Positions 39,485 to 55,485 of a stretch of DNA of 64,000 nt are shown here, piece after piece. Position 1 is the first letter of the stretch; every line of letters starts with the position of its first letter. This DNA comes from Rathayibacter oskolensis (GTDB lineage Bacteria; Actinomycetota; Actinomycetes; Actinomycetales; Microbacteriaceae). The DNA is taken from contig NZ_FXBM01000002.1 in the NCBI RefSeq assembly GCF_900177245.1, positions 1,116,001-1,180,000 on the forward strand, read 5' to 3'. A model generated the notes under the pieces. It was not told where the DNA came from and did no database searches. It saw nothing but the letters and a program-made list of their open reading frames with translations. A program made the position numbers and the translations under genes.

Positions 39485-39507
39485 GGTGCTGTCCTTCCGT
39501 CGTGTGG

Positions 39508-40380
39508 TCAGTGCTGGCGCTCTTCGGTGAAGAGCCGGTCGAAGGCGTCGACGCTGCGGTCGATCACCGTCGTGGGCGTCTCGAGGTGCACGGCGCCGCT
39601 GGGCACGAGCCCAGCGCCACCGAAACGCTCCATGACGCGCCACTGGGCGGCGACGTCCTCGCCGCTGTGCTCTGGGGGCAGTTGCTCCCAGAAGTCGAAA
39701 CCGCCTGAAGCGACAAGCGCGTCTCGGCGGTAGAGAGCGCAGGCACCCAGCCAGGCGATGCGGTAGGGGAGCCAGCCGCCTTCCGGCACGTCCAGACGCG
39801 CCGCGAGGTGCGTCAGGTTCGCCCCGTTGTGCAGCGGCCAGCGCTCGAACGGCGCGGTGCCGCGGCGGATGCGCTCGGGCTCGACTGCGCCGCGCCACGG
39901 TTCGAACGCCTCCTGCTCGTGCGGACGGACGTCGTCGAGGTAGGACAGCCCCTGCACGGCCGAACCGACGAAGCCGCAGTCGAGGCGCTCGAGCGCGTCG
40001 TGCAGCCGTGCGAGCGTGCCCGGCTCGAGCCAGACGTCGTCGTCGAGGAACAGCACGGCCGGCGCGCTCGAGAGCGAGAGCAGGAACTGCCGCTGGTGGG
40101 CGAGTCCGAGGCGCGGGAGGTTGGCGCGCACGAGGGTCGCGCGTCCCTGCGCCTCGAGGACGCGCAGCATCGAGAGCACTGTGGGGTCCGTGGAGGCGAC
40201 GCCGTCGTCGGACTGGTCGCTGACGATCACGCGGAACGGCGGGTCGTCCTGCGCCGCGAGTCCGGCGAGGGTGGCGGCGAGTTCGGCGCGGCGTCCGGCC
40301 GTCGGGATGAGCACGTCGACGAGCGCCGTCCGGCCCTCTCCCGCCCGCCCCCACTCGCCCGACCATCGCCGGCTGCTCAT
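39508..40380 (-). CDS. family 2 glycosyltransferase
   Basis: 290-residue GT-A enzyme. N-terminal DVLIPTAGRRAELAATLAGL, the DxD-type metal motif VLFLDDDVWLEPGTL (about residues 100-114), and a C-terminal acceptor part with RRDALVASGGFDFWEQLP and EHSGEDVAAQWRV. ATG overlaps the stop of the HldE gene, so it is made with it. The sugar transferred is unknown; heptose metabolism next door suggests a role in a heptose-containing glycan. Confidence 0.88.
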   Translation of the reverse strand: MSSRRWSGEWGRAGEGRTALVDVLIPTAGRRAELAATLAGLAAQDDPPFRVIVSDQSDDGVASTDPTVLSMLRVLEAQGRATLVRANLPRLGLAHQRQFLLSLSSAPAVLFLDDDVWLEPGTLARLHDALERLDCGFVGSAVQGLSYLDDVRPHEQEAFEPWRGAVEPERIRRGTAPFERWPLHNGANLTHLAARLDVPEGGWLPYRIAWLGACALYRRDALVASGGFDFWEQLPPEHSGEDVAAQWRVMERFGGAGLVPSGAVHLETPTTVIDRSVDAFDRLFTEERQH

Positions 40381-41861: not shown

Positions 41862-43180
41862 CGCGCGGCGCCGGGGAGGACGGGGAGGCCGAAGTGGACG
41901 ACCGTGGTCGTGGTCATCTCGTCGAGCAGCTCCGGTCCGTAGCCGAAGCCGGAGCCGCTGGTGCCGCGCGGCTGGGCGCTGCCGCCCGGCGCGCCTCCGA
42001 AGACGCCGTTGATCTTGACGGTGCCGACGGGGAGGGTCGCCGCGGCGCGGTGCGCGTGCTCCATGTCGGCGGTGAGGACCGTCGCGGCGAGGCCGTAGGG
42101 GCTCGCGGCGGCCCGGGCGAGGGCCTCGTCGAAGCCGTCGACGACGAGGATCGGCGCGACCGGTCCGAAGGTCTCCTCGGTCATCACGAGCATCTCGTCG
42201 GTGCAGCCGGCGAGGACGGTCGCCGGGTAGAAGGTGCCGTCGCCGGGCGTGCCACCGGTGAGGGCGGTCGCTCCGCTCTGCGTGGCCTGCGTGACGTGCT
42301 CGTGCACGGCGTCGCGCATGCGGGCGTCGACGAGGCGGGGGAGGGGGCCGGCGCTCCAGCGGTCGGCCTCGCCGACGAGCGCGGCGGTGAAGGCCTCGGC
42401 GATGTCGCGGTGCACGTAGATCCGCTCGACGGAGGTGCAGATCTGGCCGGCGTTCGCGAAGGCCCCCAGCGCCGCCTGCTCCGCGGCCCAGACCGGGTCG
42501 ACGTCGCGGTCGACGACGAGCGCGTCGTTGCCGCCGTTCTCGAGGATCACGTGCGCGCCGGTCACGGCGGCGACGCGGGCGAGTGCGCGGCCGGTGGCGG
42601 TCGAGCCGACGTGCGCGAGGACGTCGACGCCCTCGGTGCGGGCGAGCGCATCGCCGACGGCTCCGTCGCCCTCGACCAGGGTGAGCACGCCGTCGGGCAG
42701 GGCCTCGGCGAGGATCCGCGTGAAGAGGGCGCCCGTCGCGGGGCTCCGCTCGCTGGGCTTGTGGATCACGACGTCACCCGAGACGATCGCGGCGCCGAGC
42801 ATGCCGGCGGCGACGGCGACCGGGTCGTTCCAGGGAGTCAGGGCGAGGACCACGCCGCGGGGGTGCGGCAGGGCGAGATCGACGTTGAGGGCGCCTCCGC
42901 GGAGGCTCTTGCCGCGGTGCAGCGGGCCCAGCTCGGCGTACTGGAGCAGGGTGTCGACTCCGGCGCGGACACCGCCCAGGGCGTCGCCCGCGGGCTTGCC
43001 GGTCTCGTCGGTGTTGAGGGCGGCGAGCTCGTCCTCGCGCTCGGCGACGCGGTGGGCGGCGGCGCGGAGCAGGGCGCCGCGCTCCGCGGGTGCGGTGGCG
43101 GCCCAGGCGGGGAAGGCGGCGCGGGCGCGCTGGACGGTGGTGGCGGAGCTCGTGGCGGCGGGGGCGGTGTCGATGGTCAC
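41858..43180 (-). CDS. aldehyde dehydrogenase family protein
   Basis: 440 residues, GTG start at 43180 behind GAGAGGTG. NAD-binding LTPWNDPVAVAAGML, HKPSERSP, general base Glu in VILENGGND, nucleophile Cys in FANAGQICTSVERIYV, and EETFGPVAPILVV. The substrate is unknown; the position as first gene of the operon with hldE and GT2 suggests oxidation of a sugar aldehyde or a semialdehyde made for the glycan. It is shorter than most ALDHs (about 480). Confidence 0.88.
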   Translation of the reverse strand: MTIDTAPAATSSATTVQRARAAFPAWAATAPAERGALLRAAAHRVAEREDELAALNTDETGKPAGDALGGVRAGVDTLLQYAELGPLHRGKSLRGGALNVDLALPHPRGVVLALTPWNDPVAVAAGMLGAAIVSGDVVIHKPSERSPATGALFTRILAEALPDGVLTLVEGDGAVGDALARTEGVDVLAHVGSTATGRALARVAAVTGAHVILENGGNDALVVDRDVDPVWAAEQAALGAFANAGQICTSVERIYVHRDIAEAFTAALVGEADRWSAGPLPRLVDARMRDAVHEHVTQATQSGATALTGGTPGDGTFYPATVLAGCTDEMLVMTEETFGPVAPILVVDGFDEALARAAASPYGLAATVLTADMEHAHRAAATLPVGTVKINGVFGGAPGGSAQPRGTSGSGFGYGPELLDEMTTTTVVHFGLPVLPGAAR

Positions 43181-43200
43181 GGGTCACCTCTCGATCGGAG

Positions 43201-43233
43201 GCGTCCGCAGGGGTCGCGGACGCGTGTGCACAC
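43201..43233 (-). promoter_or_regulatory. leader hairpin and palindrome before ALDH operon
   Basis: GCGTCCGC (43201-43208) pairs with GCGGACGC (43216-43223), and GTGTGCACAC (43224-43233) is a perfect 10-bp palindrome at the predicted start of transcription. They could be an operator and a 5' leader hairpin. Confidence 0.4.
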
Positions 43234-43238
43234 CTCCG

Positions 43239-43263
43239 GTACCCTCAGCGGACTCGGCTAGAC
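43239..43263 (-). promoter_or_regulatory. SigB/SigF-like promoter of ALDH-hldE operon
   Basis: On the minus strand GTCT (43263-43260), 15 bp, GGGTAC (43244-43239). It matches the GNNT-N14-16-GGGTAC/T pattern known for actinobacterial SigB/SigF-type factors and is identical in form to the promoter at 53592. ATG/GTG follows after about 58 nt. Confidence 0.55.
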
Positions 43264-43311
43264 ACAGCGCGCCACGGACGCCGAGCAAGAGCTGGCGCCT
43301 TCTCCTCGAGC

Positions 43312-43334
43312 TGTACAAGTTGTACTATCTGGTT
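43312..43334 (+). promoter_or_regulatory. toxin-antitoxin operator and leaderless promoter
   Basis: Palindrome GTACAA-G-TTGTAC (43313-43325) contains the TGTACA core (43312-43317) known from YefM-type operators. TACTAT (43323-43328) ends 6 nt before ATG 43335, so the antitoxin mRNA is probably leaderless and the operator overlaps the -10. Autorepression is expected. Confidence 0.65.
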
Positions 43335-43580
43335 ATGACCAGCGTGACTCTGTCTCAATTCCGCGAACGCCAGAGCGATTACATCGCCGAGGCCCAGCGA
43401 GAGCCGGTGGAGATCACTTCCCGAGGCGTCGGACGGCGCGCAGTGATCGTCTCCCCAGACTTCTTCGACCGTGCGATGCAGGCGCTCGAGGACCAGTCGG
43501 ATGTCAGCGCCGCCGCCGAGGCGCGCAGCGACCGCGGCCGCGTGACCCACGAGGAGTTGATGGCCGAGCTGAAGATTTGA
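43335..43580 (+). CDS. type II antitoxin, Phd/YefM family
   Basis: 81 residues. N-terminal SVTLSQFRERQSDYIAEAQREPVEITSRG is the Phd/YefM DNA-binding fold; the acidic C-terminal tail (EARSDRGRVTHEELMAELKI) binds the toxin. ATG 43335. Seven bases separate it from the toxin gene. Confidence 0.92.
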   Translation: MTSVTLSQFRERQSDYIAEAQREPVEITSRGVGRRAVIVSPDFFDRAMQALEDQSDVSAAAEARSDRGRVTHEELMAELKI

Positions 43581-43587
43581 TCGTTGA

Positions 43588-43845
43588 GTGTCGTATTCGA
43601 TCGTCTACAGCCGCGCCGCTGCCAAAGCCTTCCGTGGAATCCATCCGAACGATCAGCGATCAATCAAGGCAGCCGTCGAGGGCCTCACGGTCGAGCCACG
43701 CCCTCCCGGCGCCATCCAGCTCGTGGGAGGTGGCGGCGAGTACCGTGTACGAGTCGGCGACTACCGCATCGTGTACGACATCCAGGACGGCGAGCTCGTG
43801 ATACTCGTCCTGCGCGTCGCGCATCGAAGAGAGGTCTACCGGTGA
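43588..43845 (+). CDS. type II toxin, RelE/ParE superfamily
   Basis: 85 residues from GTG 43588. MSYSIVYSRAAAKAF, then GEYRVRVGDYRIVYDI and a basic end RVAHRREVYR: the RelE fold, an mRNA endonuclease acting on ribosomes. Arg residues of the catalytic surface are kept, so it is probably active. It stands with its antitoxin, in sequence of lower GC than the flanking heptose genes. Confidence 0.92.
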   Translation: MSYSIVYSRAAAKAFRGIHPNDQRSIKAAVEGLTVEPRPPGAIQLVGGGGEYRVRVGDYRIVYDIQDGELVILVLRVAHRREVYR

Positions 43846-44066
43846 GGTTCTAGATACCCGGTGGATCAGACCGTGATCGACACCGTCCGCCTCAAGGCGG
43901 AAGTCGCGCTGGCGGCCAAGACACCGCCGTCGTCCTCATTCCGGTTCTCCGATCGCCCGCTTCGCCCGCGCCTGGTTCGCACAGGGATGAGAGAGGCGCC
44001 CTGGTTCCAGGATTGCGCGGAGCGTGTCGCTCGATTCGAGAAGCAGGGACGAGGCATTATTGGCTC
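43846..44066 (+). other. short interval without a confident gene
   Basis: Between the toxin and the FRG gene. A 91-codon frame from 43861 overlaps the FRG start but resembles nothing and is not called. CATTAT (44055-44060) ends 6 nt before the FRG ATG and may be its -10. Confidence 0.5.
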
Positions 44067-45394
44067 ATGGAAGACATTGGCGCTGAGGACGGCGCGCAAC
44101 AAAGCGTTCCGGTTGTCCCACAAGAGAATACCGTGAGCTCTGTGCAAGATGCCGTGGAGCGTTTCTCTGAAGCAGATCTATCAGGTGCATTTGCCGGAAT
44201 TGCGCAACTTCAGGAATACTTGGCGTCGCCTGCGGTACAAGCAATCGCTGAGCTGCAGGAGAGTTGGATTGCTAGCCTGCGCTCCTCCCTCTCGCCAGCA
44301 CTGGCTTCCCTGAGCACGCAAGAGCAGGCGATCATCGCAGGGTTGCGTCCTCTTTTTCAAAACACCTTGAGTAAGCCCGCCGACTTCCAAACGCTTGAAG
44401 AGTCCCCATCGGGATATTCGACTGAGATGACGAGTCCTTCGAGCTACTACGAGCGTGATCAAGGTGTAGTCGATTCATTCGACTCCCTCAATGAAGCCAT
44501 TGTGCGTCTCATCTCGAAAAATCCTTCATTGAAGCTCGTCTGGCGAGGTCAGCAGAATGCTGAGTGGGGTATGCACAGTGGCCTCTTCCGTCGATTGATG
44601 CAGCTCAACGGGGTTAAAGGTCCTCAGGAGCGCCCAGAAGAGTCGCAACCCTACCCAGACGAAAGACAACTCGTGCAGGCCGAGCGAAAGATGCTCGACA
44701 TCGCCCGAGATCGGTGGCGCCTCGATGGGCTTCCGGCGCTGGAGATATTTGCCCGACTTCAGCATCACGCTGGGCCGACGCGCTTCATTGATATCACTCG
44801 CAATCCATATATCGCTGCATGGTTTGCAGTTGAAGCGAGCGAGGCCTACGACACGACTCCTGCCCGCTTGTTCGGGATCGCGGTCGCGCCGGCGGTCGCG
44901 GATGGAGACAAGGCTCCCGACGACGCGATCCGCCTTGATGATGCCGGAGGCACGAGAGACCCGTTCTGGCATTCCCTGACTAGTTCCGCGGATCGCCAGG
45001 GAGCTGATTGGGGTACGGGTGCCAAGCGTCGAATTTGGATACCCCCCGCGTATGATCAGCGCATCGTCGCGCAAAATGCAGGCTTTCTTCTCGACGGTGT
45101 GCCCATGATGAGCGCTAAGATCGCGCCGTACTTCAAGATCGATTCAAGAAGCGTTTATTGGAAGAAGGCGGATCTCCTTGCGGCGGCTTCCCTGTACCTG
45201 AAGACCGCTAAACCTTCGCGAAAGGCTCAAATCAACTCGAAGAATCTCCAACATTCATCTTCCTTATAACAGCCGAGGGGAAAGCGGATATTCGGAAGGT
45301 CCTCGAGGAGCGTTTCTCATACAATCATTCGACGATTTATCCAGATATTTCCGGTCTCGCGGGATATCTAGACGCCTCGCTGCAGGATCTGTGA
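44067..45394 (+). pseudogene. FRG-domain protein with C-terminal frameshift
   Basis: ATG 44067 opens a 400-residue frame ending at 45269. The FRG domain (about residues 150-230) shows LKLVWRGQQNAEWGMHSGLFRRL in part and RLQHHAGPTRFIDITRNPYIAAWF. The C-terminus of the frame (KAQINSKNLQHSSSL) has no family likeness, whereas the -1 frame from about 45228 reads NQLEESPTFIFLITAEGK and on to GLAGYLDASLQDL before a stop at 45394, which looks like an FRG-protein tail. One deleted base near CAAATC explains it. Lower GC than the neighbours. FRG proteins are seen in defence and toxin contexts. Confidence 0.7.
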
Positions 45395-45509
45395 CGCCGT
45401 CGGTGCGCCGAGTAGGGGCATACATCTGTTCATCGGGTAGGAAATTCTTGATCGGACTCTCTAGCGACTCATCTTGTGTCCCGTTCCCCAATTCTTCTGG
45501 GCCTTGGGT

Positions 45510-45532
45510 CTGGATCGCCCCACGCGATCCAG
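45510..45532. terminator. hairpin downstream of FRG gene
   Basis: CTGGATCGC (45510-45518) and GCGATCCAG (45524-45532), perfect 9-bp stem with a 5-nt loop. It could end the FRG transcript. Confidence 0.55.
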
Positions 45533-45607
45533 TACTCGTCATCGCCGTTCATCGTCATTGTGCTGCGGGGCTGTGGCGATCACTGACCTAAGTCTGTGAA
45601 CCTGGTG

Positions 45608-45632
45608 GTTTCGGATAGCCCTCGACGGGAAC
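45608..45632 (+). promoter_or_regulatory. SigB/SigF-like promoter of first GT9 gene
   Basis: GTTT (45608-45611), 15 bp, GGGAAC (45627-45632). The -10 differs from GGGTAC by one base; SigB-type boxes tolerate A or T there (GGGWAW). Expected start near 45639. Confidence 0.5.
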
Positions 45633-45696
45633 AGGGGGAGTGCACACCGCCCCCGGAGCCGCCCCACCGCGCCTCTGCCCACCGAGAGGAACCCCC

Positions 45697-46779
45697 GTGG
45701 TCGCCATCGCCCCCCTCCGAGAGCGCTTCGACGGAGTCGAGAGGATCGCGGTCCTGCGCGGTGGAGGCCTCGGCGACCTGCTGTTCGCGCTGCCGGCGAT
45801 CGACGCGCTCGCCGCGGCCTACCCGGGAGCCGAGATCACCCTGCTCGGCACCGCCGCCCACCGCGTGCTGCTCGAGGGGAGCGGCTCCGCCGTCTCCGGC
45901 GTCGAGGTGCTGCCGGTCGCGCAGGGCGTCCAGGACGGCGAGGCCGAGGATCCGCTCCTCGTCGAGGAGTTCGTCGCGAGGATGCGGTCGCGCTCCTTCG
46001 ACCTGGCCGTGCAGCTGCACGGGGGAGGGCGGTTCTCGAACCCGTTCCTCGAGCGGCTCGGCGCGCGGCACGCGATCGGCTCGCGCACCGACGACGCGGC
46101 CGGGCTCGAGCGCACCATCCCCTACGTCTACTACCAGCACGAGATGCTGCGGGCCCTCGAGATCGTCGGGCTCGCGGGAGCGGGGGCGACCCGGCTCGAG
46201 CCCGCGCTCGGCGTCGACCCGACCCGCCGCGACCGGCTCGCGGCCGCCCTGCCCGAGGGCGGGCCGCTCGTCGTGATCCACCCCGGCGCCACCGACGTGC
46301 GCCGGCGCTGGCCCTCGGCGTCATTCGCGGAGGTGGCGACCGCGCTGATCGCCGACGGGGCGCGCGTGCTCGTGGTGGGCGACGCCTCCGACGTGCCGGC
46401 CGCCGACGAGATCGTCGCCGGCGCCCCGGGCGCCGTGTCGTGGGCGGGTGAGCTGGAGCTGCGGGATCTCGCGCCGCTGCTCTCGCTCGCCGACCTGGTG
46501 CTCGGCAACGACAGCGGGCCGCGACACCTGGCGGCAGCGGTCGGAGCACCCACGGTCGGGATCTTCTGGGTGGGCAACGCGATCAACGCAGCGCCGATGG
46601 GCCGGCAGCGGCACCGCGTGCAGCTGAGCTGGACGACCCGCTGCCCGGTCTGCGGGATCGACGCGACCCAGGTGGGCTGGACGGCTCCGCGCTGCGAGCA
46701 CGAGCTGTCGTTCGTCGACGACGTGCGCGTCGACCGCGTGCTGGAGGACGTGCGCGGGGTGCTCGCCTCCACCCGCTGA
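45697..46779 (+). CDS. family 9 glycosyltransferase (heptosyltransferase type), copy 1
   Basis: 360 residues from GTG 45697, preceded by GAGAGGA; a GTG at 45640, at the expected transcription start, would add 19 residues. N-terminal AVLRGGGLGDLLFALPAI and C-terminal GNDSGPRHLAAAVGAPTVGIFW are the GT9 (ADP-heptose transferase) signatures. A Cys-rich tail part (RCPVCGID, PRCEHEL) is unusual. Divergent from the toxin/FRG insert, convergent with the SDR operon. Confidence 0.88.
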   Translation: MVAIAPLRERFDGVERIAVLRGGGLGDLLFALPAIDALAAAYPGAEITLLGTAAHRVLLEGSGSAVSGVEVLPVAQGVQDGEAEDPLLVEEFVARMRSRSFDLAVQLHGGGRFSNPFLERLGARHAIGSRTDDAAGLERTIPYVYYQHEMLRALEIVGLAGAGATRLEPALGVDPTRRDRLAAALPEGGPLVVIHPGATDVRRRWPSASFAEVATALIADGARVLVVGDASDVPAADEIVAGAPGAVSWAGELELRDLAPLLSLADLVLGNDSGPRHLAAAVGAPTVGIFWVGNAINAAPMGRQRHRVQLSWTTRCPVCGIDATQVGWTAPRCEHELSFVDDVRVDRVLEDVRGVLASTR

Positions 46780-46782
46780 ACG

Positions 46783-46827
46783 CGAGATGCCACCCGGGTG
46801 CGCGGGGCGCGCTCAGGTGGCATCTCG
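46783..46827. terminator. bidirectional terminator of heptose operon
   Basis: CGAGATGCCACC (46783-46794) pairs with GGTGGCATCTCG (46816-46827), 12-bp perfect stem, 21-nt loop. It ends GT9 on the plus strand and the SDR operon on the minus strand. Confidence 0.8.
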
Positions 46828-46844
46828 AGAGGGTCGTCAGGGTG

Positions 46845-47549
46845 TCACGGCCAGGACGGCTCCTCCTCGTGGGTGATCACGAGCTCGCGGACCTCGCAGC
46901 CCTGCGGCTGGCCGAGGATGAACATGACCGCGTTGGCCACGTTCTCGGGGTCGTTCAGCAGCGCGTCGGGGCCGGGCTTGTACTGCTCGTCGCGGTCGTC
47001 GAAGAAGCGCGTCTTCATCCCGGAGGGGATCAGCGTGGTCACGCCGATCTCGCCCTTGGTCTCGGCCGCGAGGGCCCGGGTGAAGCCGAGCACGCCGAAC
47101 TTCGAGGCGCAGTAGGCGGTCGCGTCCGAGACGGCCTTGATCGCGAGGGAGGAGGCGACGGTCACGACGCGCCCGTGCGTCTCGGTCAGGAACGGCAGCG
47201 CCGCCCGGACGACCGCCGCGGTGCCGAGGAGGTTGACCGAGATGACGCGCTCCCACTCCTCGGGCTCGACGTCGACGAGCCGGCCGCACCGGTCGATACC
47301 CGCGGCGGTCACGACCGCGTCGAGTCCGCCGTGCTCGCGGGCGATCTCGACGACGGCCTTCTCGGCCTCGCGGGTCTTCGCGACGTCGACCTGGTAGGCG
47401 GCGACGCCCTCGCGCACCGACGACACGTCGCGGTCGAGGACGATCGGAGTCCCGCCGGCGGCGGTCACGGCGGCGGCGACGGCGGCGCCGAGGCCCGACG
47501 CTCCTCCGGTGATCAGAACGCGGCCGATGGGGGTGGGGGTGGTGCTCAT
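46845..47549 (-). CDS. short-chain dehydrogenase/reductase
   Basis: 234 residues, classical SDR: LITGGASGLGAAVA (NAD(P) binding), Asp in DVAK, NLLGTAAVVRAAL, catalytic Ser-Tyr-Lys in SSLAIKAVSDATAYCASKFG. It has only the short SDR form, not the extended HldD (about 310 residues), so it is unlikely to be the ADP-heptose 6-epimerase. Last gene of the gmhB to hldE2 operon, start ATG 47549 after AAAGGAC. It may reduce or oxidise a sugar or other intermediate. Confidence 0.85.
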   Translation of the reverse strand: MSTTPTPIGRVLITGGASGLGAAVAAAVTAAGGTPIVLDRDVSSVREGVAAYQVDVAKTREAEKAVVEIAREHGGLDAVVTAAGIDRCGRLVDVEPEEWERVISVNLLGTAAVVRAALPFLTETHGRVVTVASSLAIKAVSDATAYCASKFGVLGFTRALAAETKGEIGVTTLIPSGMKTRFFDDRDEQYKPGPDALLNDPENVANAVMFILGQPQGCEVRELVITHEEEPSWP

Positions 47550-47572
47550 GGGTGTCCTTTCGAGGGGCGGAG

Positions 47573-48949
47573 TCAGCCGACGCGCGCGAGCGCGGCGGCG
47601 AGGCGGGTGGTCGAGCGGCCCGGGTGATAGGGCACAGTCAGCACGCGGCCGCCCCATTCGGCGACGGTCGCGGTCTCGGGGAGGGACTCGGCGGAGTAGT
47701 CGCCGCCCTTCACCCAGACGTCGGGGCGGATGCGGCGCAGCGCCTCGTCGGGGGTGTCCTCGCCGAAGACGATCACGGCGTCGACGCAGCCCAGCGCGAG
47801 GAGGAGGTCGACGCGATCGTCCTCGGGGATGATCGGGCGCAGCTCGCCCTTCAGGCGTCGCACGGAGTCGTCCGAGTTGAGGCAGACGATCAGGCAGTCG
47901 CCGAGGGAGCGCGCGGCGGCGAGTGTCCTCGCGTGACCGGCGTGCAGCAGATCGAAGCAGCCGCCGGTCGCGACGACCGTGCCGCCCGAGGCGCGCACCG
48001 CCTCCGCGACCCGGAGCGCGTCGACGCCGCCGCCGTGCAGGGGGGCCGCGTCGGCGGGCGCCGCGAGCGAGGCGACGCCTCCGGCGAGCAGGTAGGCGCC
48101 CGCGTCGGCGACGGCCGCGCCGACCGCCTCCGAGGGCGTGGCACCGCCGGCGAGGGCGACGGCGGCGGAGGCGGCGAAGCGGTCGCCCGCGCCGCACGGG
48201 TCGGTGGGCGGGATCGACGCGGCCGGCACGACGACCGGCACGCCCGCGCCGCGCGAGCGCACGAGCGCCCCGCCGGAGCCCATGGTCACCGCGACGGCGC
48301 CGCAGGCCCAGCGCTCGAGCAGCGTCGTGGCGGCAGACTCGGCCCGCGTCACTCCGCGACCCGTCGCACCCGAGAAGGCGGTCGCCTCCGCGAGGTTCGG
48401 AGTCACCAGGGTCGCACCCGCGACCGGTGTCGAGCCGCGGGGGTGCGGATCCCACACCAGGGGCACGTCGAGGGCGTCGAGGGCTGCGCGGAGCGAGGCG
48501 TCCTCGGTGAGGCGGCGGCCGTAGTCCGCGACGACGACCGCGTCGACGCCGCGGAGCGCGGCGAGCATCTCGTCGGTCACGGCGGGCAGCGGTGGTCGCT
48601 CGCAGCCGCGGTCCAGGCGCACGACGGCCTGCCCGGAGGCGGCGACACGGGTCTTCACCGGCGTCGGAGCGCCCGACACGCCCGAGACCAGGCGGATCCC
48701 GTCGAGCTCGGCGCGCAGCTCGGCGACGTCGGGGTCGGAGTCGTCGGCGAGCACGGTGACGAGGGTCACGTCGTGGCCGTCACGGGCGAGCATCCGCGCG
48801 ACCAGGCCGGCGCCTCCCGCCCGGGCGCCGCGCGACGAGACGTCGACGACGGGCACGGGCGCATCGGGGCTGAGCCGCTCGGCCGGGCCGGAGAGGTCGA
48901 CGTCGAGCATCACGTCGCCGACGACGGCGATCCGCAGGCGCGCGCTCAC
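47573..48949 (-). CDS. second HldE-like kinase / nucleotidyltransferase
   Basis: 458 residues from GTG 48949. Same two-domain plan as the canonical copy: PfkB kinase (VVGDVMLDVDLSG, GAGD at 253-256) and nucleotidyltransferase (CFDLLHAGH, HAGH 336-339; VWVKGGDYSAESL). The kinase motif GGAAN is GGAGL (45-49) here, lacking the Asn that binds the sugar. It may differ in substrate or have a weak kinase. GTGA overlap with gmhA upstream; 23-bp gap to SDR downstream. Confidence 0.85.
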   Translation of the reverse strand: MSARLRIAVVGDVMLDVDLSGPAERLSPDAPVPVVDVSSRGARAGGAGLVARMLARDGHDVTLVTVLADDSDPDVAELRAELDGIRLVSGVSGAPTPVKTRVAASGQAVVRLDRGCERPPLPAVTDEMLAALRGVDAVVVADYGRRLTEDASLRAALDALDVPLVWDPHPRGSTPVAGATLVTPNLAEATAFSGATGRGVTRAESAATTLLERWACGAVAVTMGSGGALVRSRGAGVPVVVPAASIPPTDPCGAGDRFAASAAVALAGGATPSEAVGAAVADAGAYLLAGGVASLAAPADAAPLHGGGVDALRVAEAVRASGGTVVATGGCFDLLHAGHARTLAAARSLGDCLIVCLNSDDSVRRLKGELRPIIPEDDRVDLLLALGCVDAVIVFGEDTPDEALRRIRPDVWVKGGDYSAESLPETATVAEWGGRVLTVPYHPGRSTTRLAAALARVG

Positions 48950-49566
48950 GCGGCCGCCTCCGTCCGCGCGCGGATCCGGTGCTCGAACGCCCGGCACAGG
49001 GCGTGCACGAGCACGAGCTGCGCCTCCTGCACGTTCGAGCCGTGCCCCTCGAGCGCGATCGACTCGTCGCAGAGCTCGGTCAGCGGGTTGGGCCCGTCGC
49101 CCGTCAGCGCCCAGGAGCGGGCACCCGCGGCGCGCGCCGCCTCGGCCGCGTGGAGCAGGTTGGCGCTGCGGCCGCTGGTCGAGAGCAGCACGACGACGTC
49201 GCCGGCGCGGGCGTGCGCCGTGACCTGCCGCGAGAACACGTGGTCGAATCCGTAGTCGTTGCCGATCGCGGTCAGGCTCGACGACTCCGCGTGCAGCGAG
49301 ATCGCCGAGAACGGGATCCGGTCGCCGTCGAAGCGGCCGACCAGCTCCGCGGTCAGGTGCTGCGCCTCGGCCGCCGAGCCGCCGTTGCCGGCCGCGAGCA
49401 GTCGGGCCCCGGAGTGCAGGCGGTCGGCGAGCTCGACCCCCCAGGCGGTGATGCGGTCGGAGTGGCGCTCGAGCTGGGCGACCACGGCGAGCGCGCGGGC
49501 GATGTGCTCGTCGACGAGGCGCCGGGCGGCGTCCGTCGGTGCGTCCAGGACGGTGTCGATGGTCAT
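48946..49566 (-). CDS. gmhA: sedoheptulose-7-phosphate isomerase
   Basis: 206-residue SIS-domain protein. [22 protein letters not shown] carries the zinc/substrate contacts, [20 protein letters not shown] the phosphate-binding loop (Arg where many GmhA have Asn), and [15 protein letters not shown] the second metal contact. It converts sedoheptulose 7-phosphate to D-glycero-D-manno-heptose 7-phosphate. Coupled by 4-bp overlaps to hldE-like and GT4 genes. Confidence 0.9.
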
Positions 49567-50876
49567 CGTCGCGGGGCCTTCCGGGTGAGGGGGGAGGAGG
49601 AGGGGGTGCCGGCGGCGCCGCTGAGGACGGAGTCGTCGGCGAGTCCGTCGAGGACGGCGGAGTAGGCGCGCTCCGTGTCCGCGGCGACGCGGTCCCAGGA
49701 GTAGCGGGACTCGACGCGCTCGCGACCGGCCGCTCCGTAGGCGCGAGCGCGCTCCGGGTCGTCGATCAGAGCGGCGAGCGCGGAGGCGAGGGCTGCGGGG
49801 TCGCGCGGCGGGACGTGCACGCCGGTGACGTCCTCGACGACCGTGTCGATGAGGCCGCCGACGGAGGAGGCGACCACGGGCACGCCGCACGCCATCGCCT
49901 CGAGGGGCGTGATCCCGAACGGCTCGTACCAGGGCGCGCAGACCACGATGTCGGCCGAGCGGAGCATCGCGGGCATCTCGGCCTGCGAGAGCTGACCCAC
50001 GAGCGCGACGCGATCGGCGACTCCCAGGCCCTCGACGATCGCGTGCAGCCGCTGGTACTCGGGGTCGGCCGCGAGGGCGTCGCCCGAGCCCGAGCCGCCG
50101 ACGATCACCAGCTCGGCGTCGTGCCCGTCGGCGACGACGCGGGCCAGGGCCTCGATGGCGTGCCCCATGCCCTTGCGCGGGACGAGGCGGCCGATGCTCA
50201 TCAGCCGGGTGCGGCCGGTGCGCGGCGCGACGGGGCCGTCGGGAGTGAAGCGCTCGATGTCGACCCCGCACGGCACGACCGAGATGGCTCCTGTCGGCAC
50301 GCCGAGGTTCTTGAGCTCGAAGGCCTCGTCGGAGCAGGTCGCCACGATGCGGTCGGCGCTCAGGCCCACTCCCGGCTCGAGCCACTCGCGCTCGGCGGGG
50401 CTCGTGTCGAGGGCTCCCTGCTGGCGCCGCTTGACGACTCCGAGCGCGTGGAAGGTGTGCACCACGGGGACGCGGCGGCCGGTGGCGCGCTCCACCTGCT
50501 CCGAGGCGTCGAGCGCGGCGACCCCGGACATCCAGAAGTGGCTGTGCACCAGGTCGGGGCGCTCGTCGACCCACTCCGCGGCGAGGTCGCGCGCGAAGTC
50601 GGCCATGAAGGGGAGCAGGTCGTCCTTGGGGACGCGCCGGGCGGGGCCCGCGTCGACGTGCACGACCTCGACTCCCGAGGTGAAGGGGACGCGGCGCGGC
50701 AGCGTCGGGTCGTCGCGCCGGGTGTAGACGACCACGCGGTGACCGCGCCGGGCGAGCGCCTCGGCGAGGGCCGCGACGTGGACGTTCTGCCCGCCGGCGT
50801 CGACGCCTCCGAGCGTCGCCAGAGGGCTGGCGTGCTCGGAGACCATCGCGATGGTGAGCGGCGAGGTCTGGCTCAT
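49563..50876 (-). CDS. family 4 glycosyltransferase
   Basis: 437 residues, GT-B fold. N-terminal [30 protein letters not shown] (MshA/sucrose-synthase-like GG loop), central [20 protein letters not shown], and C-terminal [20 protein letters not shown] with the retaining-enzyme Glu motif. Uses a nucleotide sugar to extend the glycan; the sugar cannot be told. Overlaps its neighbours by 4 bp. Confidence 0.9.
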
Positions 50877-51871
50877 CGGGTGCTCCCTGCTCGGTTGTCG
50901 GCGGGCCTGCGGCCGGAACGGCGAGGAAGGTCCGAGAGGAGCTCGTCCCAGTCGCGGTGGAACCGGCCGAGCCCGTAGCGCTCGAGGGCGCTCTCGCGGG
51001 CGACGGCCCCGGCGCGGGCTGCCCGCTCCGGATCCTCGATCAGCGCCCGCGCCGAGGCGGCGAGCGCGTCGAGGTCGTTCGAGATCGCTCCGGCCTCGGG
51101 AGGCACGGCGCGCCCCGCCTCCGTGGTCTCGAGCGTCACGACCGGCATGCCGAGGTGCATCGCCTCGAGCAGCGCCAGGCCGAGCGAGGTCCAGCGGAAG
51201 GGGTGCAGGTAGACGCGGCGGCGGGCGAGCGCCGAGTGCATCTCTCCGGTGCGGACATCACCCTGCACTCCCACCGCCTCCAGCCCCGGCAGCTCGCGCA
51301 GGCGGTCGGTCTTCATGCCGAAGACGTCCAGCGGTGCGAGGTCGGCGAAGCGGGGGAGGAGGTCGGTCCCCGCGACCCTGCCGCGGCGCACCGGCTCGTT
51401 CACGACGACTCCGAAGTGCGGGAGCTCGCCCGTGTAGAGCGGCCCGGGATCGTGGATCCCGTGCTCGATGACGGTGGTGGTGGTCGACCCGGTGTCCCAC
51501 ATCAGCGCGTTGAAGTGCGTGACGTGCACGAGGACGAGATCGTCGCGATCGGCGAGCGGATGACGGTTGTCGGGCACATCGCCGCGGGGCGTGTTGTGCT
51601 CGATGTAGACCGCGGGCAGGTCGAGCCCGAGCCGGCGGCCGAGCAGTCGCTCCGCCTCGGCGAGCTCCTCCGGGCGCTGCAGCAGCACGGCGTCGACGTC
51701 GGCCTCGCGCAGCTGGTCGGGAGCGATCTCGATCGCGTTCGGCCAGTCGCGACCGCCGGTGCCGAGACCCCAGCCGTCGCGCTCCGGGGTGGTGGGGAGC
51801 AGGTACTCGTGGTCGCCGCGGACGAACGCGTCCGCCCAGCCGCCGTGCACGTGCCAGAGCAGGATCCTCAT
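50873..51871 (-). CDS. glycosyltransferase, GT-B type
   Basis: 332 residues. [19 protein letters not shown] start; mid region [16 protein letters not shown]-terminal [21 protein letters not shown] resembles the donor-binding motif of GT4-like enzymes. It has a shorter N-domain than the preceding GT4. ATG 51871 overlaps the GT9 stop. The sugar is unknown. Confidence 0.82.
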
Positions 51872-52914
51872 GCCATCGCCTCCGTCGTCGTCGCCGTGCG
51901 CGCACCGAGTCGCAGCGCGGCAGCGACCGCCTCCTCGGCGCTCACCCCCGCGAGGCAGGGGTGGCCGGGCACCGGGCAGACCCGGGCCCGCGAGCCGGCG
52001 CACGGCGCGTGCTGGTCGCCGAGCAGCTCGACCGGCACCCCGTAGGGCGCCCAGCGGATCGCGGGGACGACCGGTGCGAACAGGCTGACGACCGGTGTGC
52101 CGACCGCCGCGGCGAGGTGCGCGGGGCCCGTGTTGCCGCTGATCACGACGTCGGCGCGCGCCAGCACCTCGGCGGCACCGGCGAAGTCGGTGACGCCGCC
52201 CAGGTCGATCCCGCGGCTGCCCGCGACCTGCGCGGTCAGGGTGCGCTCGCCCGGTCCGCCGGTGACGGCGACCGCCCAGCCCTCGTCGGCGAGCAGCTCG
52301 ACCGCGCGCGCCGCGTTCTCGGCCGGCCAGGCGCGGGCGGGCACCGCCGCACCGGGGTGCACGACGACGTAGCGGCCGATCCCCTCGAGCACCTCGGGGA
52401 GGCGCCCCTCGCGGCGCACCCGGAGGCGGCCGTCGTCGCCGTCGGGGAGGGGGAAGCCTGCGGCGGCGGCGATCGCGAGGGCGCGCTCGGGCTCCGGCTG
52501 GTCCTCCTCGAGACTCTCGCCGGGGACGAGGCGGACGTCGAGCAGCGCGCCGGCGAAGTCGACGGAGGCGCCCGTGATGCGGGCGACGCCGGCGAGGCGC
52601 AGCAGCAGCGCGAGCGGCAGCGGCGACTGGTGGAAGGAGGTGAGGACGACCGCCTCGTCGGGGGCGAACTCCTCGACGATCCCGCGCAGCTCGTCGACGA
52701 GCTCGGCGTCGACCGGGCGGGAGGCGTCGCCGATCCAGGGGCACCACCAGGTGCGCACCGACGACGGTCCGGGCAGCAGTGCCGCGGCGGGAGCGCCCTG
52801 CGGACCGCACAGCAGCAGCACCTCGGCGTCCGCCGCGATCGCCCGCACGGCCGGACCGCACAGCAGCACATCGCCCGCGCTGTCGAGGCGGGCGACGAGC
52901 ACGCGCCGGGTCAC
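51868..52914 (-). CDS. family 9 glycosyltransferase (heptosyltransferase type), copy 2
   Basis: 348 residues from GTG 52914. VLVARLDSAGDVLLCGPAVRAI at the start, VVHPGAAVPARAWP in the middle and SGNTGPAHLAAAVGTPVVSLF at the nucleotide-sugar site: a GT9 enzyme, most similar to LPS heptosyltransferases. Overlaps gmhB by a GTGA. Probably transfers a heptose. Confidence 0.88.
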   Translation of the reverse strand: MTRRVLVARLDSAGDVLLCGPAVRAIAADAEVLLLCGPQGAPAAALLPGPSSVRTWWCPWIGDASRPVDAELVDELRGIVEEFAPDEAVVLTSFHQSPLPLALLLRLAGVARITGASVDFAGALLDVRLVPGESLEEDQPEPERALAIAAAAGFPLPDGDDGRLRVRREGRLPEVLEGIGRYVVVHPGAAVPARAWPAENAARAVELLADEGWAVAVTGGPGERTLTAQVAGSRGIDLGGVTDFAGAAEVLARADVVISGNTGPAHLAAAVGTPVVSLFAPVVPAIRWAPYGVPVELLGDQHAPCAGSRARVCPVPGHPCLAGVSAEEAVAAALRLGARTATTTEAMA

Positions 52915-53498
52915 TCGGCGTCTCCGTCGGGCTGCATCGCGAGCAGCAGCTCGACCGCCTCGAGGAGCGTCGCCGCCCGCAGCGGGGCGGCGGCCACCTC
53001 CTCCGAGCGGGTGATCGGGGTCGGCACGATCACGCCGCGCGCGCCGGCCGCCGCGGCTGCGCCGACGTCGGCGCCGATGTCGCCGATCACGGCGAGGCTC
53101 TCCGGGGGCAGCCCCAGCGCCTCGGCCGCTCCGAGCACCATCCCTGGCGCGGGCTTGCGGCAGTCGCAGCCGTCGGCCGGCCCGTGCGGGCAGAGCATCC
53201 AGACGTCGAAGCCGCCGAAGAGCTCGTCGACCCGCGCGTTGACCGCGTCGGCCTGGGCGCGGTCGATGATGCCGCGGGCGATCCCCGACTGGTTCGTGAC
53301 GACGCCGAGGGCGAGCCCCGCCTCGCGCGCCCGCTCGACGGCGTCGAGCGCGGTCGGCATCGGGACGACCTTCTCGGGGTCCCCGTTGTAGGGGACGTCG
53401 ACCACGAGCGTCGCATCGCGGTCGAAGAGGATCCCGCGCAGCCGCGGCGCCCGCGCGCGGGCGGCGGTCGCGGTGCTCCGGAGGATCGAGACGTTCAC
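52911..53498 (-). CDS. gmhB: D-glycero-D-manno-heptose 1,7-bisphosphate phosphatase
   Basis: 195-residue HAD phosphatase. Motif I ILFDRDATLVVDVPY (Asp 26 and 28, with Ala where GmhB usually has Gly), zinc site CPHGPADGCDCRKPAPGM (Cys/His pattern as in GmhB), motif IV GDIGADVGAAAAAG. Removes the C7 phosphate between the two HldE steps. GTG 53498 starts the operon; the predicted -10 ends 9 nt upstream. First of seven genes ending at the SDR. Confidence 0.9.
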   Translation of the reverse strand: MNVSILRSTATAARARAPRLRGILFDRDATLVVDVPYNGDPEKVVPMPTALDAVERAREAGLALGVVTNQSGIARGIIDRAQADAVNARVDELFGGFDVWMLCPHGPADGCDCRKPAPGMVLGAAEALGLPPESLAVIGDIGADVGAAAAAGARGVIVPTPITRSEEVAAAPLRAATLLEAVELLLAMQPDGDAE

Positions 53499-53507
53499 TT
53501 CTTCCTC

Positions 53508-53533
53508 GTACCCCCTGCACCGGGTCCGTAAAC
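53508..53533 (-). promoter_or_regulatory. SigB/SigF-like promoter of gmhB operon
   Basis: On the minus strand GTTT (53533-53530), 16 bp, GGGTAC (53513-53508). It matches the GTTT-N15-17-GGGTA pattern of SigF-type factors. The sigma gene is 1 kb away. Confidence 0.65.
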
Positions 53534-53591
53534 GCGAGGAGGGAGAAGTCGTCGCGCTCGGGCGCGTCGAGGCTCCGATCTCCCCGGTCGC

Positions 53592-53616
53592 GTCTGAGCC
53601 CTCGGCAGCGGGGTAC
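53592..53616 (+). promoter_or_regulatory. SigB/SigF-like promoter of third GT9 gene
   Basis: GTCT (53592-53595), 15 bp, GGGTAC (53611-53616), divergent from the gmhB promoter in a 144-bp interval. Its CGTACCCC/GGGGTACG halves are mirror images. Confidence 0.6.
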
Positions 53617-53642: not shown

Positions 53643-54665
53643 GTGCGCGCTCTCACCGACCCCGACGGCACCCCGGAGATCCTCGCGCTGCGTGCGCTGA
53701 AGCTCGGCGACATCCTCGTCGCGGTCCCGGCGCTGCACGCGCTCCGCCGCGGCTTCCCCGAGCACCGGCTGATCTTGGCGACCACGCCCTGGCTCGAGCC
53801 GATCGTCGATCTGATCGACGGCCTCGACGCCCTGGTCCCGACGCTGCACGGTCTCGACGATCCGCTCCCCGTGGCGCCGGACCGCATCGACCTCGCCGTC
53901 AATCTGCACGGCAACGGGCCGGAGTCGCGGGACGCGCTGCTCGCTCTCCGGCCGCGGCGGACCCTCGAGTTCCGCGTGCCGGCCCTCGATCCGGGCGCCG
54001 GCCCCGATGACCCGCGACCCCTCTGGATCGACGGCGAGCTCGAGCGCGCGCGCTGGGCCCGGCTCGTGAACTCGATCGGCCTCGACGCCGACCCCGAGGA
54101 CGTCGGCATCGCGGTGCCCGAGGTCGCGGCGCCCGTGGCCGGTGCCGCGGTGGTGCACATCGGCGCCTTCTACGGCTCGAGGGAGTGGCCGGAGGAGCGC
54201 TTCGCCGCGGTCGCGCAGGCGCTCGCCGCCCAGGGCCACCGCGTCGTCTTCACCGGAGGCGCGAACGAGGCCGACCGCGCGCGCCGGGTCGCCGAGATCG
54301 CCGGCGTCGGCGAGGTGCTCGCGGGAGGGATCGACCTGGCGGAGTTCGCCGCGGTGGTCGCCTCCGCCGAGGTCGTCGTGACGGTCGACACCGGAGCGGC
54401 CCATCTCGCCTCGGCCTACGGGATCCCCTCCGTGGTGATCTTCGGACCGGCCCCGCCCGAGGCCTGGGGCCCGCCCGTCACCGGCCCGCACGTCGTGCTC
54501 ACCGACGCGTCGCTGCGCCGCGGCGACGTCTTCTCGGCGGAGCCCGACCCTGCGCTGCTCGCTGTGCAGGTCGACGACGTCCTCGACGCCCTGGCCTCGC
54601 TCCCCGATCGCGCCGGAGCGCACCTCAGGCGGTCCGCAGTCGGGCACTCGAGCCGACGGGAGTGA
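53643..54665 (+). CDS. family 9 glycosyltransferase (heptosyltransferase type), copy 3
   Basis: 340 residues from GTG 53643 with a strong site AGGAAGGAGG upstream. LALRALKLGDILVAVPALHAL, then VVHIGAFYGSREWPEERF and VDTGAAHLASAYGIPSVVIFG are GT9 motifs, though the usual GNDSG is TVDTGA. Its last 41 bp overlap the 3' end of the sigma gene on the other strand. Probable heptosyltransferase. Confidence 0.87.
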   Translation: MRALTDPDGTPEILALRALKLGDILVAVPALHALRRGFPEHRLILATTPWLEPIVDLIDGLDALVPTLHGLDDPLPVAPDRIDLAVNLHGNGPESRDALLALRPRRTLEFRVPALDPGAGPDDPRPLWIDGELERARWARLVNSIGLDADPEDVGIAVPEVAAPVAGAAVVHIGAFYGSREWPEERFAAVAQALAAQGHRVVFTGGANEADRARRVAEIAGVGEVLAGGIDLAEFAAVVASAEVVVTVDTGAAHLASAYGIPSVVIFGPAPPEAWGPPVTGPHVVLTDASLRRGDVFSAEPDPALLAVQVDDVLDALASLPDRAGAHLRRSAVGHSSRRE

Positions 54666-55485
54666 CCGTGGCGACCCGGCCGCGCGGCTGCTGCGCGCGC
54701 GACGGGGCGCCGAGGCGGTCGGCGAGCTGAGCGAGGATCCGGCGCTGCAGGCGCGACACCTGCATCTGCGTGGTGCCGAGGGCGTCCGCGATCTGCTGCT
54801 GGGTCATCTCCTCGACGAACCGCATCCGGAGCAGCTCGCGCTGGCCCTCCTCGAGCTCGCCGAGCGCGTCGGCCAGGCCGTGGCGGCGCTCGATCCCGGC
54901 GAGCCGCTCGTCCTCGCCGCCGAGCGTCTCGCTCAGCCGCACTCCCGCCTCGCCGACCGTCTCGTCGAGCGACAGCGGGTGACCGGCGGTCCGAGCATCG
55001 GCGACGTCGCCGACCTCGACGCCGAGGCGGTGGGCGATCTCGCGGTCGGAGGGGTGGCGTCCGAGCTCCTGCGCCAGCTCCTCCGCCACGAGGGTGCTGC
55101 GGCGGTGCAGCTCCTGCACCCCGCGGGGCGGGCGGATCATCCAGCCGAGATCGCGGAGGTGGCGCTTGAGCTCGCCGGTGATGGTCGGCACCGCGAAGGC
55201 GGCGAAGCTGTCGCCGCGCTCGGGGGTGAAGCGCTGCGCGGCCTTGACGAGGCCGACGTAGGCGACCTGGCGCAGATCCGCTCCGTCGCCGCTGCCTCCG
55301 CGCGACACGCGACGGGCCATGGCCTCGGCCAGGCCGAGGTGATCGAGCACGATGCGCTCGCGGATGCGGTCGGCCTCGGCCGCCTCGGCTGTCGCGGCGC
55401 GGTGGAAGAGCGAGAGGGTGCGAGCGTCCTTCTCCTCGCGGGCGGAGTCCGACAGCGCTGCGGGCGCGAGGCGGGTGAGGCTCAT
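54625..55485 (-). CDS. SigB/SigF-family sigma factor
   Basis: 286 residues from ATG 55485 behind GAAAGGAG. Region 2 (RIRERIVLDHLGLAEAMARR, GADLRQVAYVGLVKAAQRF), region 3 and region 4 helix-turn-helix (LRMRFVEEMTQQQIADALGTTQMQVSRLQ) in order, as in stress and sporulation-type factors. No anti-sigma or anti-anti-sigma gene is adjacent. The four SigF-like promoters next door make it a candidate regulator of the heptose cluster. Confidence 0.9.
   Translation of the reverse strand: MSLTRLAPAALSDSAREEKDARTLSLFHRAATAEAAEADRIRERIVLDHLGLAEAMARRVSRGGSGDGADLRQVAYVGLVKAAQRFTPERGDSFAAFAVPTITGELKRHLRDLGWMIRPPRGVQELHRRSTLVAEELAQELGRHPSDREIAHRLGVEVGDVADARTAGHPLSLDETVGEAGVRLSETLGGEDERLAGIERRHGLADALGELEEGQRELLRMRFVEEMTQQQIADALGTTQMQVSRLQRRILAQLADRLGAPSRAQQPRGRVATVTPVGSSARLRTA

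What the first reader, a model, noticed from the sequence alone, without database searches (positions are those of the whole stretch)
43239..53616. SigB/SigF-like promoter box upstream of all four heptose transcription units
GTCT-N15-GGGTAC (43263-43239, minus), GTTT-N15-GGGAAC (45608-45632), GTTT-N16-GGGTAC (53533-53508, minus), GTCT-N15-GGGTAC (53592-53616). In a manual scan of the other intergenic regions I found no comparable pair. A SigB/SigF-type sigma gene (54625-55485) sits beside the cluster. The glycan could therefore be a general-stress or stationary-phase coat.
Basis: partly seen in the sequence, partly recalled or inferred. Interest (0 to 1): 0.85.

Follow-up and report, generated by a model that had tools for sequence, protein, structure and literature searches.

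The report
Dedicated sigma factor for heptose glycan
Four matching promoters in front of a heptose-sugar gene cluster are real and conserved across related soil and plant bacteria, and they are probably switched on by the cluster's own sigma factor, which looks more like a private switch for one sugar coat than a general stress alarm.

Summary
All four GTYT-N15/16-GGGWAC boxes are where stated, upstream of heptose-cluster genes in a Rathayibacter-like genome. They are kept in every Rathayibacter sequence examined while spacers vary. In a 4.1-Mb relative, 4 of only 25 such sites are these positions.

Across 93 clusters, a box 9-10 nt before the gmhB start codon occurs in 80 of 84 genomes bearing the neighbouring SigB/F-like sigma, and in 0 of 8 that keep the cluster without it. 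Those eight reflect about three losses, so independence is limited. Sigma and HldE genes co-occur in 22 of 199 genomes, about 4 expected.

The 'general-stress coat' reading is not supported: the SigF consensus is rare outside the cluster. A modest excess of looser sites in Rathayibacter (84 against 55 controls) leaves room for a few other targets. No RsbW-type gene was seen beside the sigma.

Best reading: a cluster-linked SigB/F-like sigma acting as a near-dedicated switch for an ADP-heptose glycan. Recognition is inferred; no transcription data exist.

The parts
43239..43263 (-). SigB/F-type promoter of the aldehyde dehydrogenase-HldE1-DUF2795 unit (GTCT-N15-GGGTAC)
   Evidence: present in 7 of 7 Rathayibacter sequences examined, window included (L035's copy of the unit was not in the locus and not fetched)
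45608..45632 (+). SigB/F-type promoter of a GT9 gene (GTTT-N15-GGGAAC)
   Evidence: 8 of 8 Rathayibacter sequences, 5 of the 8 ending GGGAAG
53508..53533 (-). SigB/F-type promoter of the gmhB unit (GTTT-N16-GGGTAC); start codon 9 nt after the -10, so a near-leaderless mRNA is predicted
   Evidence: 8 of 8 Rathayibacter sequences; 80 of 84 sigma-bearing relatives
53592..53616 (+). SigB/F-type promoter of the second single GT9 gene (GTCT-N15-GGGTAC)
   Evidence: 8 of 8 Rathayibacter sequences; of 75 loci the strict pattern is seen in 7, all Rathayibacter, and a looser one in one more
54625..55485 (-).
   Evidence: TIGR02980 E 1.4e-60, 204.8 bits, below its curated cut-off of 234.35; nearest solved chains 8x6g_H and 1l0o_C
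52911..53498 (-). gmhB-like HAD phosphatase, first gene of its unit
   Evidence: PF13242 E 1.2e-13, frame read; the name gmhB rests on its FDRDATL motif and context (recalled)
51868..52920 (-). heptosyltransferase-like GT9 (start uncertain)
   Evidence: PF01075 E 3e-23
50873..51870 (-). GT4-type glycosyltransferase (start uncertain; part of the open frame 50873-52861)
   Evidence: PF13692 E 9.2e-10 at residues 512-610 of that frame
49563..50876 (-). GT4 glycosyltransferase
   Evidence: PF00534 E 6.1e-40
48946..49620 (-). SIS-domain protein, GmhA-like isomerase by context (start uncertain)
   Evidence: PF13580 E 7.7e-22
47573..48997 (-). HldE2, heptose kinase/adenylyltransferase
   Evidence: TIGR02199 185.3 bits, over cut-off 181.5
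46845..47575 (-). short-chain dehydrogenase (start uncertain)
   Evidence: PF00106 E 8.4e-37
45697..46779 (+). heptosyltransferase-like GT9 (start 45697 or 45640)
   Evidence: PF01075 E 1.2e-28
53643..54665 (+). heptosyltransferase-like GT9, convergent with and overlapping the 3' end of the sigma gene
   Evidence: PF01075 E 2.6e-23
41858..43180 (-). aldehyde dehydrogenase
   Evidence: PF00171 E 2.6e-104
40377..41861 (-). HldE1, heptose kinase/adenylyltransferase
   Evidence: TIGR02199 190.6 bits, over cut-off 181.5
39293..40366 (-). open frame with a C-terminal DUF2795 domain; relatives suggest a small free-standing DUF2795 gene at its 3' end
   Evidence: PF11387 E 1e-21; in-frame stops 9 codons upstream of the aligned domain in L001, L002 and L006

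Best explanation
The four boxes are promoters of one type, read by RNA polymerase carrying the SigB/SigF-like sigma factor encoded beside the cluster. When that sigma is active it turns on all four units. Together they encode GmhA- and GmhB-like enzymes and two HldE enzymes (ADP-heptose synthesis), three GT9 and two GT4 glycosyltransferases, an SDR and an aldehyde dehydrogenase, so the cell makes a heptose-containing glycan, probably at its surface. If transcription starts about 7 nt after the -10 (usual geometry, recalled), the gmhB message begins 2-3 nt before its start codon. In Rathayibacter the sigma serves mainly or only this cluster. Shown here: the boxes, their position and conservation, and their joint presence or absence with the sigma. 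Inferred: that this sigma reads them, that transcription starts there, the nature and place of the glycan, and that the regulon is narrow. Unknown: the signal that activates the sigma.
For: Boxes exact and above chance. 4 of 25 sites in the Leaf185 genome are the orthologous four positions; reversed control 11 in the genome. Present in 8/8, 8/8, 8/8 and 7/7 Rathayibacter sequences examined, with 0, 5, 5 and 0 of 14 spacer columns invariant for gmhB, GT9a, GT9c and the dehydrogenase (the boxes were picked by the pattern, so their own invariance is partly by construction). In 1.60 Mb of 80 loci, 98 sites against 13 for the reversed pattern; 83 of 98 at the four starts. gmhB box with a start codon 9-10 nt on: 80 of 84 sigma-bearing, 0 of 8 sigma-lacking; reversed control 0 of 93. 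In 20 loci from the family sample, 12 of 13 sigma-bearing have a box at a cluster start (all 15 of their hits are there) and 0 of 7 sigma-lacking; in L130, L132 and L136 the sigma gene is roughly 28-31 kb from the gmhB box. Sigma in 24, HldE-type match in 32, both in 22 of 199 genomes. One match of 199 bits or more to TIGR02980 in 17 of 20 genomes. GTTT-N15/16-GGGNAC-N9/10-RTG finds the gmhB site in 10 of 10 sigma-bearing and 0 of 4 sigma-lacking genomes.
Against: No expression or binding data. Sigma absence rests on about three changes on a FastTree tree, two on starred branches; the sign test is not significant. 4 of 84 sigma-bearing clusters lack the gmhB box as defined (L029, L070, L128, L135); L128 and L135 have one at GT9a and L029 has a GGGWA-type box that the pattern does not admit; L070 has none. 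The looser GGGNA[CGT] form was chosen after seeing misses; with GGGWA it is 75 of 84. L015 is counted as sigma-bearing on a partial match near a contig end only (one search found no good match); without it 79 of 83. L045, a fragmentary MAG with no good sigma match, keeps the box. L139 has sigma but no box. 2 of 24 sigma-bearing genomes have no HldE match (G025, G141). Some genomes hold more than one SigB/F-like sigma: six matches of 121-168 bits in that of L067 and two in G128. One search scored at most 10 candidates per genome. In six Rathayibacter genomes 84 GTYT sites lie outside the cluster against 55 controls. The sigma scores below the TIGR02980 cut-off.
Confidence: 0.78

Rival explanations
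1. The sigma is a general-stress/stationary-phase factor and the heptose cluster is one of many targets.
For: SigF of M. smegmatis has a broad regulon (PMC4694148 passages). In six Rathayibacter genomes GTYT-N15/16-GGGWAC has 84 non-cluster sites against 55 for the reversed pattern. Of 40 of these 84 inspected, 8 are intergenic with a predicted gene downstream. In Arthrobacter-group loci a box precedes 6 of 24 copies of a Lys/Ala/Glu-rich protein, of which the one copy tested has no Pfam match, and lies elsewhere near the sigma in L080; 2 of 36 DUF2795 genes have one.
Against: No excess of GTTT-N15/16-GGGWAC over 12 genomes, 88 against 93. In Leaf185 GTTT-N15/16-GGGTA occurs twice, once in the cluster. 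23 of the 40 inspected sites are inside coding frames and 9 have no gene predicted downstream. 13 of 13 DUF3618 loci have no box.
Confidence: 0.16
2. The boxes are binding sites of a repressor or activator rather than promoters, and the sigma is a bystander.
For: No direct evidence of transcription; asymmetric operators exist.
Against: Fixed 15-16 spacing and match to SigF/SigB boxes; first in-frame start exactly 9 nt after the -10 in 59 of 75 loci; no gmhB box in 8 of 8 sigma-lacking clusters.
Confidence: 0.05
3. Chance boxes in a GC-rich genome picked out after the fact.
For: The motif was defined from the same four sites.
Against: In other genomes: gmhB box 81 of 93 against 0 of 93 for the reversed pattern; 82 of 99 against 0 of 99 (three of the 99 loci repeat genomes).
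Confidence: 0.01

Closest known systems
Mycobacterium smegmatis SigF and its regulon (PMC4694148, passages read)
   Same: Promoter boxes GTTT-N14-19-GGGTA with GGGAA and GGGCA variants; a last table column that I take as distance to the start codon has several values of 8-11
   Different: Broad regulon there, with a partner-switch system (PMC7693655, abstract start in listing); here few sites outside the cluster and heptose glycan targets
Streptomyces coelicolor SigB homologues (PMC8346170, passages read)
   Same: SigB family; promoters such as GTTTCG-N15-GGGTAC
   Different: Nine paralogues and many RsbW homologues, osmotic stress and differentiation; here mostly one copy per genome, tied to one cluster
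SigB and SigF of Firmicutes (nearest solved chains 8x6g_H and 1l0o_C; organisms recalled)
   Same: Sequence similarity over regions 2-4
   Different: Controlled by RsbW or SpoIIAB (recalled); different targets
Sigma factors encoded with a biosynthetic cluster, such as AlgU for alginate or ECF factors of lantibiotic clusters (recalled, no call)
   Same: A sigma encoded with, and acting on, a biosynthetic pathway
   Different: Those are ECF type; this is SigB/F type

Membership tests
SigB/SigF/SigG sigma subfamily (TIGR02980) | Sigma-70 regions 2, 3 and 4 present | tested here: met
   PF04542, PF04539 and PF04545 over their cut-offs
SigB/SigF/SigG sigma subfamily (TIGR02980) | Best match among NCBIfam sigma models | tested here: met
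   204.8 bits, ahead of SigF, SigB, FliA/WhiG and RpoD models
SigB/SigF/SigG sigma subfamily (TIGR02980) | Score over the curated cut-off (234.35 bits) | tested here: not met
   204.8 bits; 0 of 20 related genomes and 1 of 14 control genomes pass. So called SigB/F-like, not filed as a member
General-stress SigB/SigF system | GTTT-N14-19-GGGTA-type target promoters | tested here: met
   Cluster promoters; recognition by this sigma is inferred
General-stress SigB/SigF system | RsbW/RsbV partner-switch genes beside the sigma | tested here: inconclusive
   PF13581: 8 of 13 G001 matches listed, none on the sigma contig; all 7 of G004 in frames of 288 aa or more (list cut). The 14 commonest neighbour families show none by eye. 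STAS and other anti-sigma types not searched
General-stress SigB/SigF system | Broad regulon | tested here: inconclusive
   No excess of the GTTT form, modest excess of the GTYT form in Rathayibacter, 84 against 55; no shared regulon seen in 40 of 84 sites
General-stress SigB/SigF system | Induction by stress or stationary phase | not testable with these tools
   needs expression data
ADP-heptose glycan cluster | GmhA-, HldE-, GmhB- and GT9-type genes together | tested here: met
   GmhA and GmhB by domain and context
ADP-heptose glycan cluster | Product is a heptose glycan | not testable with these tools
   needs chemistry

The most novel reading that the evidence does not exclude
A SigB/F-type sigma that has shed the broad stress regulon of its relatives and become the private switch of a heptose glycan cluster in much of Micrococcales, usually the only sigma of its type in the genome, kept and lost together with the promoters it reads, and driving a near-leaderless gmhB message.
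Probability: 0.4. Interest if true: 0.75.

Novelty: new variant of a known kind. Interest (0 to 1): 0.6.

Why it matters
Heptose glycans are best known from Gram-negative lipopolysaccharide; here a Gram-positive lineage carries what looks like a full ADP-heptose pathway under its own alternative sigma. The promoter code (box plus 9-10 nt to the start codon) gives a direct, testable handle on when these bacteria make the glycan, and natural sigma-less clusters offer ready-made comparisons. It would also show how a stress-type sigma can be narrowed to one pathway.

Tried and rejected
General-stress regulon: tested by genome-wide counts and by inspecting 40 of the 84 non-cluster GTYT sites of six Rathayibacter genomes: 20 of 21 of G001, 13 of 17 of G002, 3 of 10 of G003, 4 of 15 of G004, none of G021 and G022. 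23 lie inside coding frames, 9 are intergenic without a predicted gene downstream, 8 are intergenic with one. The only shared place among these that I saw by eye is before a LacI-like regulator (L089, L120; type read from the sequence, not tested). A few true targets among the rest are not excluded.

Partner-switch control: HATPase_c_2 search in 16 genomes gave RsbW-sized frames in several genomes, also in sigma-less G013, so no link to the sigma was seen.

DUF2795, DUF3618 and the Lys/Ala/Glu-rich protein as wider regulon members: weak or absent.

The first 'GT9b' query (frame 51868-53520) carried an out-of-frame N-terminus that overlaps gmhB; searches used it. The count was repeated with gmhB itself, with the same picture.

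Literature: searches (listings only) showed no paper on this sigma or cluster; most subscription journals are not held. [quoted passage not shown]

No structure prediction was run; it would not decide promoter recognition.

Full report
What was checked. The four boxes are at the coordinates given, with the spacing given. GTYT-N15/16-GGGWAC occurs five times in the window; 100 second-order Markov simulations gave a mean of 0.21 and a maximum of 2. The fifth site (59048, minus) is inside the frame 58612-60330. No genome is held for the window itself. Its HldE2 protein is 92% identical to that of Rathayibacter sp. Leaf185, so the window is Rathayibacter or a very close relative. One search found 358 relatives of HldE2 and kept the best 80 (L001-L080).

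Anatomy. Unit 1 (minus): aldehyde dehydrogenase, HldE1, DUF2795. Unit 2 (plus): GT9. Unit 3 (minus): gmhB-like HAD, GT9, two GT4, GmhA-like SIS, HldE2, SDR. Unit 4 (plus): GT9. GmhA and GmhB rest on domain plus context; several starts are uncertain. The sigma gene is convergent with unit 4 and overlaps its 3' end. Distances from the -10 to the start: unit 4, 26 nt to a GTG after GGAAGGAGG; unit 3, 9 nt to the gmhB GTG, which predicts a nearly leaderless message; unit 1, 58 nt; unit 2, 7 or 64 nt, open.

Conservation in Rathayibacter. In Leaf185 (G001, 4.1 Mb) the exact pattern occurs 25 times (reversed control 11), and 4 of the 25 are the four orthologous positions. Counting the window, boxes are found in 8 of 8 sequences for gmhB, 8 of 8 for each of the two single GT9 genes and 7 of 7 for the dehydrogenase, three of these from genomes in which that unit lies elsewhere (the copy of L035 was not fetched). 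Invariant spacer columns of 14 compared: gmhB 0, dehydrogenase 0, each GT9 5. Five of eight unit-2 boxes end in GGGAAG. Since the pattern selects the boxes, their own invariance is partly by construction; their presence at each place is not.

Conservation beyond. In 80 loci (1,604,932 bases) there are 98 exact sites against 13 for the reversed pattern; 83 sit at the four starts: gmhB/GT9 unit 60, dehydrogenase 8, GT9a 8, GT9c 7. With a slightly different pattern (spacer 14-17, GGGWAY) starts of HldE1, HldE2, GT4a, GT4b, SDR and the sigma gene have none, in 67, 80, 78, 78, 78 and 67 loci. At GT9c the strict pattern is seen only in Rathayibacter (7 of 75 loci), a looser one in one more. Over 99 loci a GTYT-N15/16-GGGWA box lies at one of the four starts in 82, the reversed control in 0 (three loci repeat genomes).

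The sigma link. In 17 of 20 related genomes there is one TIGR02980 match of 199 bits or more; the next best, up to 136 bits, are presumably primary sigmas. In 199 genomes of the family, 24 have an orthologue (137 bits or more), 32 an HldE-type match (E up to 1e-20, which also catches HldE1-like proteins) and 22 have both; Fisher p 1.6e-19, not corrected for kinship. Loci from seven genomes with cluster but no sigma match have no box at any cluster start in 18-20 kb (one stray site in L121); 12 of 13 with the sigma do, and all 15 of their sites are at cluster starts; the reversed pattern occurs once in the 20 loci. L127, L134 and L137 repeat genomes of L009, L008 and L074 and were dropped. With gmhB as anchor, a box GTYT-N15/16-GGGNA[CGT] with a start codon 9-10 nt on occurs in 80 of 84 sigma-bearing and 0 of 8 sigma-lacking loci, reversed control 0 of 93. 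The eight are L009, L039 and L121-L126; sigma absence comes. The relaxation at the fourth base of the -10 was chosen after seeing variants such as GGGCAC and GGGGAC; with GGGWA the count is 75 of 84.

Limits of that link. On a FastTree tree of 92 HldE2 proteins the sigma state changes three times, two on starred branches; the box is absent in all three sigma-less groups, but with so few events the sign test is not significant, and the tree has long branches that meet. Sigma-bearing loci without the gmhB box are L029, L070, L128 and L135; L139 (no gmhB/GT9 unit in the locus) has none either. L015 counts as sigma-bearing only on a partial match near a contig end. L045 (status unknown, fragmentary MAG) has the box. 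One search scored at most ten candidates per genome. G025 and G141 have the sigma but no HldE match. The genome of L067 has six SigB/F-like matches of 121-168 bits and G128 has two, so the sigma is not everywhere the only one of its type.

Breadth of the regulon. GTTT-N15/16-GGGWAC in 12 genomes: 88 hits, 93 for the reversed pattern. GTTT-N15/16-GGGTA in Leaf185: two places, the gmhB promoter and a sequence found in all 12 genomes searched, probably the 16S rRNA gene (identity recalled). The GTYT form in six Rathayibacter genomes: 104 hits, 20 of them at cluster positions, 84 elsewhere, against 55 for the reversed pattern, a modest excess that I could not explain. Of 40 of the 84 inspected, 23 are inside coding frames, 9 have no gene predicted downstream and 8 are intergenic before a predicted gene. 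GTTT-N15/16-GGGNAC-N9/10-RTG in 14 genomes: 20 hits, 10 for the reversed pattern; 10 of the 20 are the gmhB sites of the 10 sigma-bearing genomes, which have 0-2 others each; the 4 sigma-lacking genomes have 2 hits, neither at the cluster. In Arthrobacter-group loci a box also precedes 6 of 24 copies of a Lys/Ala/Glu-rich protein, another lies near the sigma in L080, and 2 of 36 DUF2795 genes have one.

Control of the sigma. No box was seen before the sigma gene in 67 loci; in G012 (L066), where the sigma lies elsewhere, a GTTT-N16-GGGAAC site ends about 106 bases before the matched part of the sigma, so autoregulation there is open. RsbW-type genes: see the membership test. The input signal is unknown.

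Known biology. The box fits SigF of M. smegmatis (PMC4694148, passages) and SigB homologues of S. coelicolor (PMC8346170, passages). By sequence the nearest solved chains are 8x6g_H and 1l0o_C. The protein scores under the TIGR02980 cut-off, so it is described as SigB/F-like and not filed as a member.

Verdict. The SigB/F assignment and the link to the neighbouring sigma are well supported by comparison, not by experiment. The general-stress reading is not supported in Rathayibacter, though a few further targets remain possible; a near-dedicated glycan switch fits better.

Noticed in passing
window 43588-45269: A lower-GC stretch (0.49-0.66 in 200-base steps from 43200 to 45600, against 0.72-0.79 around it) between units 1 and 2, with a ParE-type toxin gene and an FRG-domain protein; perhaps a mobile or defence-type island.
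   Followed up: partly
window 52911-53533: Start codon 9-10 nt after the -10 box before gmhB in nearly all sigma-bearing relatives: a predicted near-leaderless mRNA.
   Followed up: yes
L052, L056, L068, L069, L075, L078, L080: A further GTTT-N15/16-GGGTAC box on the minus strand roughly 2 kb from the sigma gene, in six of the seven before a Lys/Ala/Glu-rich protein, whose L069 copy has no Pfam match.
   Followed up: partly
L023 3734-3800 and L147 1293-1504: DUF2795 genes with their own SigB/F-type box in Salinibacterium sedimenticola and in the genome of A. pascens.
   Followed up: partly
six Rathayibacter genomes: 84 non-cluster GTYT-N15/16-GGGWAC sites against 55 for the reversed pattern: an excess left unexplained.
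   Followed up: partly
genome of L067 (Sinomonas atrocyanea): Six SigB/F-like sigma matches of 121-168 bits, unlike the single copy in most relatives.
   Followed up: no
window 58612-60330: Schlafen group 3-type DNA/RNA helicase (PF09848, E 8e-66) near the cluster.
   Followed up: no
L089 and L120 (also G022:C2:965142): Shared GCAATGTTACCGGGAAC sequence upstream of a LacI-like regulator in Rathayibacter genomes, perhaps its operator.
   Followed up: no
window 54625-54665: The sigma gene and the convergent GT9 gene overlap by 41 bases at their 3' ends.
   Followed up: no
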